NCBI GenBank assembly: GCA_947503525.1 | Contig: CANNEA010000002.1 | Span: forward strand, 1-64,000 | Origin: an uncultured Carboxylicivirga sp. | GTDB lineage: Bacteria; Bacteroidota; Bacteroidia; Bacteroidales; Marinilabiliaceae | Length of the DNA: 64,000 bases | Direction of reading: 5' to 3' | Part shown: in pieces, positions 6,016 to 14,782 of the stretch | Layout: every line of letters begins with the position of its first letter | Numbering within the stretch: the stretch's first letter is position 1 | Made by a program: the position numbers and the translations under genes | The notes under the pieces: model-generated | Told to the model about the DNA's origin: nothing | Database searches by the model: none | What the model saw: only the letters and a program-made list of their open reading frames with translations

Positions 6016-6115
6016 AGAACCTTAGTTCCCCGATGCTATCGGGTGGATGCCTGCAGCAGGCAAAGAAAAGCGGCTTCCTAAACTCTGGATAAGGCTTCGA
6101 TTCCCGTAGGGACTA
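6016..6115 (+). pseudogene. tRNA-Arg(CCU) pseudogene with two palindromes
   Basis: This aligns end to end with the intact tRNA-Arg(CCU) at 9828-9899. The 3' part ttcgattcccgtagggact is identical and the anticodon loop ttcctaa is kept, but the acceptor, anticodon and T stems each have mismatches. The D-loop is split by two palindromes: cccgat-gct-atcggg (6029-6043) and gcctg-cag-caggc (6049-6061). The encoded CCA seen in the intact gene is cat here. It cannot fold as a working tRNA. Confidence 0.82.
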
Positions 6116-6169
6116 CATAATAGCATTAGACAGCTCTTAGATAAATAAGATAGGGCTCTACACTTTAAC

Positions 6170-8766: not shown

Positions 8767-8794
8767 AAAAAGGCCACATCCCTACTCATTAACC

Positions 8795-8824
8795 TAGTAT
8801 ATTTTCCTTTTTTAATTACTTTTG
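8795..8824 (+). promoter_or_regulatory. Promoter-like element, unit 1
   Basis: TACTTTTG at 8817-8824 matches TAnnTTTG exactly. The -33 triplet is TAG here, where units 2 and 3 have TTG. Confidence 0.45.
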
Positions 8825-8837
8825 CAGCAACAAAACT

Positions 8838-8951
8838 AGTCCCTTAGTTCCCCCGATGACTATCGGGGGGATATAATAGGAAAAAAGATATAGTCCCTTA
8901 GTTCAACGGATACCTGCCTGCAGCAGGCAGGGAATAGCAGTTTCCTAAACT
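8838..8951 (+). pseudogene. tRNA-Arg 5' fragments with palindromes, unit 1
   Basis: Two successive fragments both begin with agtcccttagttc, the 5' end of the intact tRNA-Arg. The first (8838-8882) is broken in the D-loop by palindrome I, ccccgat-gact-atcgggg (8851-8868). The second (8892-8951) is broken by palindrome II, cctgcctgcagcaggcagg (8913-8931), and resumes through the anticodon loop to cctaaact. No 3' half follows; the GIY-YIG start codon is 19 bp further on. Confidence 0.8.
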
Positions 8952-8969
8952 CAATTACATCCTAATAAT

Positions 8970-9218
8970 ATGAGTTGGTCAGTTTACGCCATTTATTCCA
9001 AAGAATTCAATCGTATTTATATTGGCATGTCTGAAAATCCTGCGATTAGACTCAAACAACATAATGCCGGAAAAACAAGCTCTACAAAACCATATAGACC
9101 TTGGATCCTAGTTTACACTGAAGAAATTGGAGGTAGGGCTGAAGCAAGGAAGCGGGAAAAAGAACTAAAATCAACCAACGGCAGGCGTTTTATTAAAGGC
9201 CGTATCCACACTAATTAG
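8970..9218 (+). CDS. GIY-YIG nuclease, copy 1
   Basis: An 82-residue stand-alone GIY-YIG domain of the YhbQ/UPF0213 type. The family residues are in place: VYAIYS and IYIGMS (the two GIY-YIG strands), R27 and H31 in RLKQHNAGK, and the metal-binding Glu in EARKREKELK. Such enzymes nick or cut DNA with one divalent metal; stand-alone bacterial members have poorly known roles. The gene lies directly after a tRNA-Arg 5' fragment cut off just past the anticodon, and probably shares its promoter. Copy 2 differs by one residue (I in RPWILVY is T). The placement invites comparison with homing endonucleases, which is inference. Confidence 0.9.
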   Translation: MSWSVYAIYSKEFNRIYIGMSENPAIRLKQHNAGKTSSTKPYRPWILVYTEEIGGRAEARKREKELKSTNGRRFIKGRIHTN

Positions 9219-9220
9219 CC

Positions 9221-9250
9221 TTGTATATTTTCCTTTTTTAATTACTTTTG
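9221..9250 (+). promoter_or_regulatory. Promoter-like element, unit 2
   Basis: TTG at 9221-9223, 19 bp, then TACTTTTG at 9243-9250: a full Bacteroidota promoter match. Confidence 0.6.
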
Positions 9251-9263
9251 CAGCAACAAAACT

Positions 9264-9377
9264 AGTCCCTTAGTTCCCCCGTTGACTATCGGGGGGATAT
9301 AATAGGAAAAAAGATATAGTCCCTTAATTCAACGGATACCTGCCTGCAGCAGGCAGGGAATAGCAGTTTCCTAAACT
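9264..9377 (+). pseudogene. tRNA-Arg 5' fragments with palindromes, unit 2
   Basis: Same layout as unit 1, 426 bp downstream. Palindrome I reads ccccgttgactatcgggg (9277-9294), one base from unit 1. Palindrome II (9339-9357) is unchanged. The second fragment has cttaattc instead of cttagttc. Confidence 0.8.
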
Positions 9378-9395
9378 CAATTACATCCTAATAAT

Positions 9396-9644
9396 ATGAG
9401 TTGGTCAGTTTACGCCATTTATTCCAAAGAATTCAATCGTATTTATATTGGCATGTCTGAAAATCCTGCGATTAGACTCAAACAACATAATGCCGGAAAA
9501 ACAAGCTCTACAAAACCATATAGACCTTGGACCCTAGTTTACACTGAAGAAATTGGAGGCAGAGCTGAAGCAAGGAAGCGGGAAAAAGAACTAAAATCAA
9601 CCAACGGCAGGCGTTTTATTAAAGGCCGTATCCACACTAATTAG
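9396..9644 (+). CDS. GIY-YIG nuclease, copy 2
   Basis: 82 residues, 81 of them identical to copy 1 and with the same catalytic residues. Base changes between copies are few (I to T at ATC/ACC, and silent changes in the GGR codons), so both copies are intact and recently duplicated. It is followed at once by the promoter-like element of unit 3. Confidence 0.9.
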   Translation: MSWSVYAIYSKEFNRIYIGMSENPAIRLKQHNAGKTSSTKPYRPWTLVYTEEIGGRAEARKREKELKSTNGRRFIKGRIHTN

Positions 9645-9646
9645 CC

Positions 9647-9676
9647 TTGTATATTTTCCTTTTTTAATTACTTTTG
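9647..9676 (+). promoter_or_regulatory. Promoter-like element, unit 3 (likely tRNA-Arg promoter)
   Basis: TTG at 9647-9649, 19 bp, then TACTTTTG at 9669-9676. It is the nearest promoter-like element to the intact tRNA-Arg, with about 150 bp of palindrome-bearing tRNA fragments in between. Confidence 0.55.
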
Positions 9677-9689
9677 CAGCAACAAAACT

Positions 9690-9791
9690 AGTCCCTTAGT
9701 TCCCCCGATGACTATCGGGGGGATATAATAGGAAAAAAGATATAGTCCCTTAGTTCAACGGATACCTGCCTGCTGCAGGCAGGGAATAGCA
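9690..9791 (+). pseudogene. tRNA-Arg 5' fragments with palindromes, unit 3
   Basis: Palindrome I is at 9703-9720. Palindrome II is cctgcctgctgcaggcagg (9765-9783), with tgctgca where the other units have tgcagca; this version is a perfect palindrome core. The second fragment stops after gaatagca, before the anticodon, and no GIY-YIG gene follows. Confidence 0.78.
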
Positions 9792-9827
9792 TGACTAAAG
9801 AGCTGTGTTGGGTGAGAAAATAAAAAT

Positions 9828-9899
9828 AGTCCCTTAGTTCAACGGATAGAATAGCAGTTTCCTAAACTGTAGATATGGGTTCGATTCCCGTAGGGACTA
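9828..9899 (+). tRNA. tRNA-Arg (CCU), intact
   Basis: Perfect 7-bp acceptor stem agtccct/agggact, D-stem gttc/gaat, anticodon stem gcagt/actgt with loop ttcctaa (anticodon CCT), T-loop ttcgatt, discriminator A. CCA is encoded at 9900-9902, unlike the tRNA-Asn genes here. It is the parent sequence of the fragments upstream and of the pseudogene at 6016-6115. Confidence 0.93.
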
Positions 9900-9905
9900 C
9901 CAGAA

Positions 9906-9935
9906 AGCCTGCAAACAGATTGTTTGCAGGCTTTT
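9906..9935 (+). terminator. Terminator of tRNA-Arg
   Basis: The 11-bp stem agcctgcaaac/gtttgcaggct is followed by a T-rich tract, 4 bp after the encoded CCA. Confidence 0.85.
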
Positions 9936-11548: not shown

Positions 11549-12325
11549 ATGACCAGAAAGAATTGGACACGCCACGAACTTGTTGCTGCTTTTAACTTAT
11601 ATCTTCAAATTCCATTTGGGCAAATTCATCAGAGAAATCCGAAGATTATTGAATTAGCTGAATTAATAGGTCGCTCCCCGAGTGCAATAGGACTTAAACT
11701 CTCAAATTTTGCAAGCTTCGATCCTATCTTAAAAGCAAGGGGAATAAAAGGTATGAGCAACGCGGCAAAAGCCGATCGCGAAATATTTGAGGAGTTTTAC
11801 AACAACCAAGAAGAACTGGTTTTTGAAAGTGAAACGGTTATAGCCAAATTGGAGAACAAGCCGATGGCAGATAAATTCAAAAATGAACTTCCAGATATTA
11901 AATCAATGCAGGGTAAAGAGCGATCAAGCTATATTAAATCCCGAGTTAATCAGCATTTTTTCAGGAAGGTTGTACTAACCAATTACAATGATAGCTGCGC
12001 TATCACTGGCATTTCAATCCCAACATTATTAATAGCAAGTCATATAAAACCATGGGCTAAAGACAAGGATAATAGATTGAATCCATCTAATGGCATTTGT
12101 TTATCGGTCTTATATGACAAAGCATTTGACAGAGGGCTAATAACCTTAGACGATAATTATAAAATAGTTTTATCTTCCATGCTGCTGGAGTACTCCAGTA
12201 AAGAATTCTTTCATTCTAACTTTGGTAAAATCGAAAATAAAAAGATATTTCTACCAGAAAAATATCTTCCAAATACTGATTTTTTAAAGTGGCATCAAGA
12301 GAATATTTTTGACAAAGTGAAATAA
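11549..12325 (+). CDS. HNH endonuclease, restriction-type
   Basis: 258 residues. The N-terminal 70 form a helical SANT/HTH-like DNA-binding region (WTRHELVAAFNLYLQIPFG, then SPSAIGLKLSNFASFDP). The C-terminal part is an HNH_2-type (PF13391) nuclease: CAITG, then ASHIKPW, then NGICLSVLYDKAFDRGLITL. The His of ASHI and the N and H-equivalent positions fit the beta-beta-alpha-metal fold, although the common LxxLHDKAFD reads LSVLYDKAFD. Relatives occur as restriction enzymes beside cytosine methylases and vsr. Here a vsr fragment precedes it and no methylase is seen, so it is either an orphan or methylase-independent. Confidence 0.85.
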   Translation: MTRKNWTRHELVAAFNLYLQIPFGQIHQRNPKIIELAELIGRSPSAIGLKLSNFASFDPILKARGIKGMSNAAKADREIFEEFYNNQEELVFESETVIAKLENKPMADKFKNELPDIKSMQGKERSSYIKSRVNQHFFRKVVLTNYNDSCAITGISIPTLLIASHIKPWAKDKDNRLNPSNGICLSVLYDKAFDRGLITLDDNYKIVLSSMLLEYSSKEFFHSNFGKIENKKIFLPEKYLPNTDFLKWHQENIFDKVK

Positions 12326-14250: not shown

Positions 14251-14303
14251 GCCGGGGGATCTTCAAGCAAACCCGATAGCTATCGGGTTGAAGCCTCCCG
14301 GTC
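14251..14303. repeat. Nested palindrome with aacccgatagctatcgggtt core
   Basis: A perfect 20-bp palindrome (14270-14289) inside a larger imperfect inverted repeat (ccgggggatcttcaa with ttgaagcctcccgg). The core is the same cccgat/atcggg motif that interrupts the tRNA-Arg D-loops. Confidence 0.75.
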
Positions 14304-14782
14304 TTACTAAATTTTCTCTTCATATCAACTTCAATTCCACCTGAGGCCAAAAGTCAAAGCTCTGAAGACTGTTACAATAATGACCATGCATAAATAGATA
14401 AAACCAGTTTCTATAAATATATCAATCAAGAGACATTCGTGAGTGTAGCATCAAAGTCGCAATACCTCTGGCTATAAAACAAAGCATGCGAGTCGACTTT
14501 TTTGTTTTTAATAATCTATACCCAGAGTGGCGTTTTACTTACCCTGCGCTATTAATATTTAAGCCCTGCAGGCTTAGTTTGCAATTAGAGCTGTAGATAT
14601 TCCTGAATGATGTTTCTAGTATTGAATAATATTTACTTGTAAGTGCGGTAGATGTCCCTGCCTACATCAGGTAGGCACGGATTGTGCGGATTTGTCTGAA
14701 ATGATACCGACTCCAAACCTGCCGGATTAAGCAAGCTTAAACATTTCAGAAAATCGTAATTCGTGGTGAATTTTCTTTGCGT

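What the first reader, a model, noticed from the sequence alone, without database searches (positions are those of the whole stretch)
8797..9902. Tandem units of promoter, palindrome-split tRNA-Arg fragments and GIY-YIG gene before an intact tRNA-Arg
Three 426-bp-spaced units sit directly upstream of the intact tRNA-Arg(CCU). Each carries 5' tRNA-Arg fragments broken inside the D-loop by one of two unlike palindromes. Two units then go straight from a fragment ending just past the anticodon into an 82-codon GIY-YIG gene. The layout suggests a small mobile unit that uses a tRNA gene as its home, with the nuclease acting on tRNA-Arg or the palindromes. The mobile-unit reading is inference; the repeats, fragments and genes are read directly.
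Basis: partly seen in the sequence, partly recalled or inferred. Interest (0 to 1): 0.82.

Follow-up and report, generated by a model that had tools for sequence, protein, structure and literature searches.

The report
Nuclease elements nesting in tRNA genes
A tiny nuclease gene sits beside a tRNA gene together with a hairpin-scarred leftover piece of the same tRNA, and comparisons with related bacteria suggest that it spreads by invading tRNA genes and rebuilding them as it goes.

Summary
In detail: two 426-bp units, plus a third without the nuclease gene, precede the intact tRNA-Arg(CCU), the only intact copy found in the assembly. The mobile-unit reading is supported and broader than tRNA-Arg. 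In 118 of 135 fetched high-scoring relatives a tRNA or tmRNA lies within 250 nt, always on the same strand. Neighbouring partial copies of that tRNA carry hairpins. Layouts are 5' piece-nuclease-tRNA and tRNA-nuclease-3' piece. One tRNA-Pro site is empty in 24 and occupied in 3 genomes of a flank-based sample, with 1 to 5 copies. At a tRNA-Ala site an element-type terminator follows the intact tRNA in 9 of 9 occupied and 2 of 20 empty loci; four leftover 3' pieces keep a native-type terminator. Nuclease clades keep their isotype (34 changes against 91 shuffled); hairpin type follows the clade. Best reading: a homing-endonuclease element that enters tRNA genes, rebuilds the tRNA with a donor half and leaves the old half scarred by a hairpin. 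Cleavage and the hairpin's role are inferred. Closest known: phage SegB. A new variant of homing elements.

The parts
8769..9194 (+). unit 1 (leader, two 5' tRNA-Arg pieces with hairpins, GIY-YIG gene)
9195..9620 (+). unit 2, 414 of 426 bases identical to unit 1
9621..9827 (+). unit 3, truncated: leader and both 5' tRNA pieces with hairpins, no GIY-YIG gene
8838..8868 (+). unit 1, first tRNA-Arg piece t1-12 followed by hairpin 1 (8850-8868)
8892..8951 (+). unit 1, second tRNA-Arg piece t1-21, hairpin 2 (8913-8931), t22-41
8970..9218 (+). GIY-YIG nuclease gene, 82 aa, conserved motif residues kept
9264..9294 (+). unit 2, first tRNA-Arg piece and hairpin 1 (9276-9294)
9318..9377 (+). unit 2, second tRNA-Arg piece, hairpin 2 (9339-9357), t22-41
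9396..9644 (+). GIY-YIG nuclease gene, 82 aa, second copy
9690..9720 (+). unit 3, first tRNA-Arg piece and hairpin 1 (9702-9720)
9744..9790 (+). unit 3, second tRNA-Arg piece, hairpin 2 (9765-9783), then only GAATAGC
9828..9902 (+). intact tRNA-Arg(CCU), the only intact copy found in the assembly
9904..9934 (+). terminator-like inverted repeat after the tRNA
   Evidence: pair I9
6020..6116 (+). decayed full-length tRNA-Arg(CCU)-like copy carrying versions of both hairpins (6028-6043 and 6049-6061), without nuclease gene

Best explanation
It is a minimal homing element that lives in tRNA genes. One gene encodes a single-domain GIY-YIG nuclease specialised for one tRNA isotype. The inferred cycle is as follows. 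The nuclease cuts an uninvaded tRNA gene at an isotype- and clade-specific place. The break is repaired from a donor that carries the nuclease gene next to a whole tRNA. The recipient then receives the nuclease gene, a hairpin at the invasion point and a donor half tRNA (with the donor's terminator in one layout), so that one intact tRNA is rebuilt. The recipient's own old half stays on the far side of the nuclease gene as a dead, hairpin-scarred piece. Depending on which half is rebuilt, the result is 5' piece-nuclease-tRNA (as in this window) or tRNA-nuclease-3' piece. Further cutting and repair would multiply the unit in tandem, as in the 426-bp repeats here. Shown by comparison: tRNA residence, isotype fidelity, presence/absence and copy-number variation, empty/occupied junctions, in a handful of genomes a foreign terminator on the intact tRNA with a native one on the old half, and hairpin type that travels with the nuclease. 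Inferred: DNA cleavage, its exact site, repair as the route, and the hairpin as protection of the scarred half or as the element's end.
For: A tRNA or tmRNA lies within 250 nt, same strand, in 118 of 135 fetched loci (two loci are counted twice and one is the window itself). All 6 small GIY-YIG genes of this genome stand beside tRNA-Arg, tRNA-Ala or tRNA-Phe or in a tandem array that does; its two other GIY-YIG proteins have no tRNA in their 3.2-kb loci. Partial copies of the adjacent tRNA with hairpins. tRNA-Pro site, flank-based sample, same arrangement: 24 empty, 3 occupied; tRNA inverted: 16 empty, 2 occupied; six more occupied genomes at the site came from the protein search; 1, 2 or 5 copies and both layouts. 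L186 against empty L191: left homology runs through tRNA and terminator, right homology restarts at t46, a 74-bp duplication around about 280 new bases. tRNA-Ala site (29 loci, one arrangement): element-type terminator after the intact tRNA in 9 of 9 occupied and 2 of 20 empty loci, Fisher p=5.5e-6; native-type terminator after the old 3' half in L223, L224, L242, L250. L129 at the Pro site: native terminator matches the old half at 0.90-0.92, the intact tRNA at 0.48-0.53. Tree: isotype 34 changes against 90.8 shuffled; hairpin class 12 against 26.0, and 17.2 within isotype, 2 of 500 shuffles as low. Eight columns, among them the motif residues Y6, Y17, R27, H31 and E63, are invariant in 17 aligned proteins (their catalytic role is recalled).
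Against: No cleavage was measured. The intact tRNA beside the element keeps the presumed site, so self-cutting must be tolerated, repaired or prevented in an unknown way. The terminator test is mixed at the Pro site: L129 clear; L130 weak (0.63-0.67 against 0.48-0.50); L186 uninformative; L189 (= L146), L138 and L139 mixed; L152 and L202 lean the other way, all five of these with references at 86% flank identity or less; L162 and L135 had no reference. At the Ala site L230 has element-type terminators on both copies, L247 a variant, and L226, L234 and L246 gave no old-half end. The terminator and hairpin classes were defined after seeing the sequences, and related genomes are not independent. 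In 26 of 55 layout-B rows the flank after the intact tRNA and after the old half is at least 80% identical, which fits local duplication as well. The hairpin's function is unexplained: sense and antisense strands fold equally well (44 against 32, p=0.21). Some relatives sit, by reading, inside protein genes (L081, L102, L103, L134).
Confidence: 0.75

Rival explanations
1. Passive neighbourhood: the GIY-YIG gene is an ordinary gene that happened to lie beside a tRNA, and tRNA pieces and tandem units come from slippage and local duplication without any nuclease action.
For: 26 of 55 layout-B rows have near-identical flanks after the intact and the partial tRNA; tandem units in the window are 97% identical.
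Against: Association with 14 isotypes plus tmRNA and in several phyla; isotype-faithful tree; empty and occupied alleles at one site; element-type terminator on the intact tRNA in 9 of 9 occupied against 2 of 20 empty Ala loci.
Confidence: 0.08
2. RNA-level system: the nuclease acts on tRNA or on its own transcript, and the hairpin-bearing partial tRNAs are decoys, processing signals or regulators.
For: Gene and nearest tRNA share one strand in 118 of 118; hairpins keep pairing while sequence varies; 55 of 83 inserts fold better than mononucleotide shuffles (z below -2).
Against: No strand preference in folding (44 against 32, p=0.21; 68 G-U pairs on either strand); pieces are often only one half; replacement of a tRNA half and terminator needs a DNA event.
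Confidence: 0.06
3. The palindromes are dispersed REP-like elements, and the GIY-YIG protein mobilises them as a transposase would.
For: Hairpins in the tRNA pieces of the units; hairpin class follows the nuclease tree; four loci have inverted repeats around the gene inside protein genes.
Against: The window's palindrome occurs only in the three units in 6.56 Mb with 1 mismatch allowed; one exact solo palindrome pattern taken from the protein-gene loci occurs in 0 of 61 genomes of genus g10. Other patterns were not searched genome-wide.
Confidence: 0.05
4. Integrative element using a tRNA attachment site through a recombinase, of which these are relics.
For: tRNA gene as site and rebuilt tRNA are typical of such elements (recalled knowledge).
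Against: The only ORF of at least 40 aa in the window's units is the GIY-YIG gene; both 5' and 3' halves can be rebuilt.
Confidence: 0.03

Closest known systems
SegB of T-even phages (free-standing GIY-YIG homing endonuclease near tRNA genes; PMC13096335 and PMC2988022, passages read)
   Same: GIY-YIG nuclease encoded beside tRNA genes, free of introns, implicated in cutting tRNA-containing DNA and needed for segmental (tandem) amplification of tRNA plus nuclease, which the authors attribute to homologous recombination.
   Different: SegB is a phage protein; the passages read describe no rebuilding of a cut tRNA half and no hairpin scars. Here the protein is only 82 aa, chromosomal, isotype-specialised and found in several phyla. 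No phage record matched the window protein at E 1e-5.
Group I introns with homing endonucleases in bacterial tRNA genes (review PMC3984707, passages read)
   Same: Invasion of a conserved tRNA gene with tRNA function kept; some carry homing endonucleases.
   Different: No group I intron found by Rfam in the window or the loci scanned; here function is kept by a rebuilt tRNA copy, not by splicing.
Integrative elements that rebuild a tRNA gene at their attachment site (recalled, not from a call)
   Same: Conserved tRNA as landing site, part of the tRNA carried by the element.
   Different: No recombinase in the unit; either the 5' or the 3' half is rebuilt; the displaced half carries a hairpin.
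Tsy transposons with a GIY-YIG nuclease and gene fragments at comM (PMC10293859, passages read)
   Same: A GIY-YIG gene in a unit flanked by fragments of the invaded gene.
   Different: Tsy uses tyrosine recombinases; its GIY-YIG nuclease is not essential for transposition according to that paper.
Mobile double-hairpin elements and nuclease genes that replace a gene end in fungal mitochondria (recalled, not from a call)
   Same: Hairpins at structural-RNA loops; a nuclease cassette that brings a replacement gene end.
   Different: Organellar; no such tRNA-half system is recalled.
UPF0213 proteins (1zg2, 1ywl) and SLX1
   Same: Same GIY-YIG family by sequence (E 1.8e-17 to UPF0213 BH0048).
   Different: Not known to me as tRNA-gene dwellers; a lower-scoring subfamily at one conserved position without tRNA also exists in genus g10 (L205, L214, L216).

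Membership tests
Free-standing homing endonuclease genes | Catalytic nuclease domain with intact motif residues | tested here: met
   PF01541 E=7.6e-17; Y6, Y17, R27, H31, E63 invariant in 17 sequences (catalytic role recalled)
Free-standing homing endonuclease genes | Present in some and absent from other alleles of one conserved site | tested here: met
   tRNA-Pro site, flank-based sample in one arrangement: 24 empty, 3 occupied; tRNA-Ala site: 20 empty, 9 occupied
Free-standing homing endonuclease genes | Neighbouring sequence is co-transferred with the gene | tested here: met
   Element-type terminator on the intact tRNA in 9 of 9 occupied Ala loci against 2 of 20 empty; L129 at the Pro site. 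Other Pro loci weak, mixed or leaning against.
Free-standing homing endonuclease genes | Nuclease cuts the empty allele and not the occupied one | not testable with these tools
   needs purified protein; the intact tRNA next to the gene keeps the presumed site
SegB-type phage nucleases | Close protein similarity to phage GIY-YIG enzymes | tested here: not met
   No match at E 1e-5 in 50,697 phage records; no relative confirmed in viral contigs (finds close relatives only)
Group I intron | Group I intron RNA around the nuclease gene | tested here: not met
   No Rfam intron match in the window nor in the further loci scanned
Recombinase-based integrative element | Recombinase gene in the unit | tested here: not met
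   Window units: the only ORF of at least 40 aa is the GIY-YIG gene
REP/RAYT palindromic repeats | Palindrome dispersed through the genome | tested here: not met
   Second palindrome only in the three units of the 6.56-Mb genome at 1 mismatch; first palindrome not searched genome-wide
UPF0213 / GIY-YIG single-domain proteins | Sequence similarity over the whole domain | tested here: met
   Profile A1 against 1zg2 E=1.8e-17, positions 2-74 of 84

The most novel reading that the evidence does not exclude
A separate class of mobile element in which an 82-aa nuclease without an added DNA-binding domain finds its isotype-specific tRNA gene through structure. On this reading the target is the tRNA gene's own stem-loops, extruded or single-stranded, or is found with help from the hairpin-bearing tRNA piece acting as RNA guide. 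The hairpin placed in or instead of a tRNA arm would then be the element's functional end.
Probability: 0.12. Interest if true: 0.93.

Novelty: new variant of a known kind. Interest (0 to 1): 0.8.

Why it matters
tRNA genes are among the most conserved sequences in bacteria, so an element that can enter one without destroying it has a home in almost any genome. That would explain Arg units with the same hairpin in genomes labelled as different phyla (L007, a short Omnitrophota MAG contig; L009, Pedobacter; the window). At E 1e-6 the protein profile rings in 253 of 395 Bacteroidota genomes (an upper bound, since lower-scoring relatives without tRNA also count). It would explain many small 'GIY-YIG nuclease' genes and truncated tRNA copies. 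It would also give a natural set of tiny, isotype-specific nucleases in which the question of how a minimal GIY-YIG domain reads its target can be tested directly.

Tried and rejected
RNA selection on the hairpins: sense and antisense folding do not differ (44 against 32 among 83 representative inserts, the rest ties; p=0.21). Loop-only insertion: 40 of 72 distinct pure insertions lie strictly inside loops against 28 expected (p=0.005); the T-loop is a hot spot (23 of 72), but 32 are at stem edges or in stems, so 'always in loops' is wrong. Inserts that replace tRNA bases were kept apart from that count. Dispersed palindromes: not supported for the two patterns tried. Phage or plasmid carriage: no match of the window protein. 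Group I intron: no Rfam match. An anchor for other phyla by genome search failed, so evidence outside Bacteroidota rests on the loci. Structure prediction was not run.

Literature: nine answered searches (one search listed nothing) showed no title or abstract start that describes GIY-YIG genes with partial tRNA copies and hairpins in bacterial chromosomes. The library holds open-licence papers only. I saw listings, and passages of four papers.

Selection and dropped rows: S2 to S4 are high-scoring hits from capped listings; the 60 places were taken from the top of the list down, tandem neighbours merged. Among the 135 loci L042/L062 and L046/L067 are the same places and L031 is the window's own. 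For the tree, proteins with a stop inside, matches under about 190 nt and identical proteins were dropped (170 kept, 151 labelled). The 55 Pro rows (40 empty, 15 occupied) mix the flank search with loci from the protein search; L145 = L178 and L146 = L189, and L131 and L135 are not at that flank, so I use the recount instead. Of the 67 genomes with a flank match, 50 places were examined; 5 of these had no tRNA-Pro call, one of them (L196) with a nuclease array. The 55 rows contain some loci twice.

Full report
OBSERVATION. The three repeats upstream of tRNA-Arg(CCU) are real. They start at 8769, 9195 and 9621. Units 1 and 2 differ in 12 of 426 bases. Each unit has a leader, a short piece of the tRNA (t1-12) running into one palindrome, and a second piece (t1-21) running into another palindrome. 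In units 1 and 2 the second piece resumes (t22-41), and 18 nt later an 82-codon GIY-YIG gene starts. Unit 3 has both pieces but no gene. The intact tRNA at 9828-9902 is the only full copy that a DNA search of the assembly returned; the other three hits were partial. One of them belongs to a decayed tRNA-Arg copy at 6020-6116 that carries versions of both palindromes.

THE SAME THING ELSEWHERE. The genome has six genes of this small GIY-YIG kind: two here, one after a tRNA-Ala, and three in tandem after two tRNA-Phe genes. Its two other GIY-YIG proteins (604- and 458-aa frames) have no tRNA in their 3.2-kb loci. A protein search of genome contigs, made with no reference to tRNA, gave 15 loci in several phyla; 13 of 15 have a tRNA within 250 nt, and a fourteenth (L019) holds tRNA-Phe pieces. 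Of 395 Bacteroidota genomes, 253 have a match at E 1e-6, many with several copies. Over four sets, 118 of 135 loci have a tRNA or tmRNA within 250 nt, 118 of 118 on the gene's own strand. Of the 17 others, two have the tRNA at 367 and 643 nt (L113, L096); five lie at contig ends (L021, L052, L089, L124, L127); four hold tRNA pieces by BLAST or by eye (L019, L110, L133, L142); four lie in protein genes by reading (L081, L102, L103, L134); L090 and L095 are unexplained. In a sample of 20 low-scoring hits only 10 were within 250 nt of a tRNA. At least three of the rest (L205, L214, L216) belong to another subfamily that keeps one chromosomal position across species. The tRNA habit therefore belongs to one large part of the family, and 253 of 395 is an upper bound.

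ANATOMY. Scripts comparing each intact tRNA with the DNA around the gene found two layouts: 5' piece, gene, intact tRNA (A, as here), and intact tRNA, gene, 3' piece (B). Among 151 labelled proteins the layouts are 59 A and 92 B. The pieces match the neighbouring intact tRNA closely but carry inserts, most of them hairpins: 55 of 83 representative inserts fold better than mononucleotide shuffles at z below -2. Examples are the D-loop in tRNA-Arg, the T-loop in several Asn, Leu and Phe units, several loops at once in some Ser units, and a hairpin instead of the anticodon arm in Pro(UGG), Val, Gln and some Ala units. Of 72 distinct pure insertions 40 lie strictly inside loops, with 28 expected. 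The Arg hairpin CCTGCCTGC..GCAGGCAGG or close forms recur in Arg units of different genomes (L007, L009, L030, L054, window), but in this genome it occurs, at 1 mismatch, only in the three units.

MOBILITY. One site, beside a thioredoxin-reductase-like gene (name recalled from its reading) and tRNA-Pro(UGG), was compared across genus g10. In the flank-based sample 45 of 50 places examined have a tRNA-Pro: 27 in one arrangement (24 empty, 3 occupied) and 18 with the tRNA inverted (16 empty, 2 occupied). Six more occupied genomes at the site came from the protein search. Occupied sites hold 1, 2 or 5 copies, in either layout. In the cleanest pair (L186 occupied, L191 empty, both in the inverted arrangement) left homology runs through tRNA and terminator, and right homology restarts at tRNA position 46. 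So 74 bp are duplicated around about 280 new bases: the gene, a few tRNA bases and the hairpin. L189/L190 and L162/L180 restart at the same position.

ORIGIN OF THE TWO HALVES. If a donor rebuilt the tRNA, the intact tRNA should carry the donor's terminator and the old half the native one. At a tRNA-Ala site (the 30 best flank matches to G467 among 249 genomes, 29 with the tRNA, all in one arrangement) an element-type terminator follows the intact tRNA in 9 of 9 occupied and 2 of 20 empty loci (Fisher p=5.5e-6). The old 3' half is followed by a native-type terminator in four genomes (L223, L224, L242, L250), by the element type in L230 and by a variant in L247; three loci gave no old-half end. 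The classes were drawn up after seeing the sequences. At the Pro site L129 is clear (0.90-0.92 against 0.48-0.53) and L130 weakly in favour; L186 is uninformative; L189 (= L146), L138 and L139 are mixed; L152 and L202 lean the other way, these last five against references of 86% flank identity or less. In layout A, L131, L145 and L148 share the joint between gene and tRNA while each old 5' half has its own leader, and L131 lies at another tRNA-Pro locus. Against this, 26 of 55 layout-B rows have nearly identical flanks after both copies, so local duplication also happens.

SPECIFICITY. On a tree of 170 proteins (151 labelled) the tRNA isotype changes 34 times, against 90.8 with shuffled labels (lowest of 300: 85). 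Shuffling ignores close kin from one genus, so this overstates significance; but groups in the leaf order that cross genera and, by MAG labels, phyla (Arg, Asn, Ser) keep their isotype. The hairpin class, also defined after the fact, changes 12 times on 117 labelled proteins against 26.0, and against 17.2 when shuffled within isotype (2 of 500 as low). Hairpin and nuclease thus tend to travel together. Y6, Y17, R27, H31 and E63 are invariant in the 17 aligned proteins.

MECHANISM. These facts fit homing. The nuclease opens an uninvaded tRNA gene at the place later marked by the hairpin. Repair copies in the gene, the hairpin and a replacement half, and the old half is left behind. Repeated cutting near the unit would multiply it. 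[quoted passage not shown] Here cutting, its site and the role of the hairpin are inference. An 82-aa protein is little more than the catalytic domain (residues 3-72 match PF01541), so how it recognises one isotype is open.

COMPARISON AND NOVELTY. It works like a free-standing homing endonuclease gene. The three defining features that could be tested are met, the co-transfer test with mixed results at one site; cleavage could not be tested. No group I intron was found, the unit has no recombinase, and the window protein has no match in phage or plasmid records. Rebuilding of either tRNA half, hairpin-marked remains, isotype-faithful spread and a single-domain nuclease make it a new variant of that kind. 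The pre-submission recheck changed the Pro-site counts and left the odds as they were.

Noticed in passing
window 6020-6116: Decayed full-length tRNA-Arg(CCU)-like copy that carries versions of both palindromes in its D-arm region, 2.7 kb upstream of the units and without a nuclease gene; perhaps the product of a repair that copied the hairpins.
   Followed up: partly
L081, L102, L103, L134 (around 1500-1740): The same GIY-YIG family inside protein-coding genes (four-helix-bundle-like, recombinase- and transposase-like by reading only), with the gene between inverted repeats such as CCCCGTTAGAAAT / ATTTCTAACGGGG; L081, L102 and L103 stand next to each other in the tree's leaf order.
   Followed up: partly
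L072 1513-1740: A family member 15 nt after a tmRNA gene, so the habit is not limited to tRNA.
   Followed up: no
L227 and L248, tRNA-Ala site: Empty sites whose tRNA is followed by an element-type terminator, possibly former carriers that lost the nuclease gene.
   Followed up: no
L205, L214, L216: A lower-scoring GIY-YIG subfamily at one conserved chromosomal position without tRNA, apparently inherited vertically.
   Followed up: partly
L010, L011, L019, L140: The nuclease reading frame runs back through the tRNA gene, so automatic annotation may add tRNA-derived residues to these proteins.
   Followed up: no
L196 (G401): A nuclease array of about six genes at the flank of the tRNA-Pro site where no tRNA-Pro was called in the 4-kb stretch.
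   Followed up: no
window 11549-12325: An HNH_2 nuclease gene (PF13391) lies 1.6 kb downstream of the tRNA; relation unknown.
   Followed up: no
window 14272-14287 and 14657-14675: Two further palindromes resembling the unit palindromes (CCCGATAGCTATCGGG; CCTGCCTACATCAGGTAGG with 3 mismatches), outside any called tRNA.
   Followed up: no
L143, upstream of tRNA-Ala at 1361: Two tandem tRNA-Ala-like copies with a hairpin in place of the anticodon arm and no nuclease gene between them.
   Followed up: no
L124 904-976: Rfam match to Flavo-1 RNA in a locus of genus g10.
   Followed up: no
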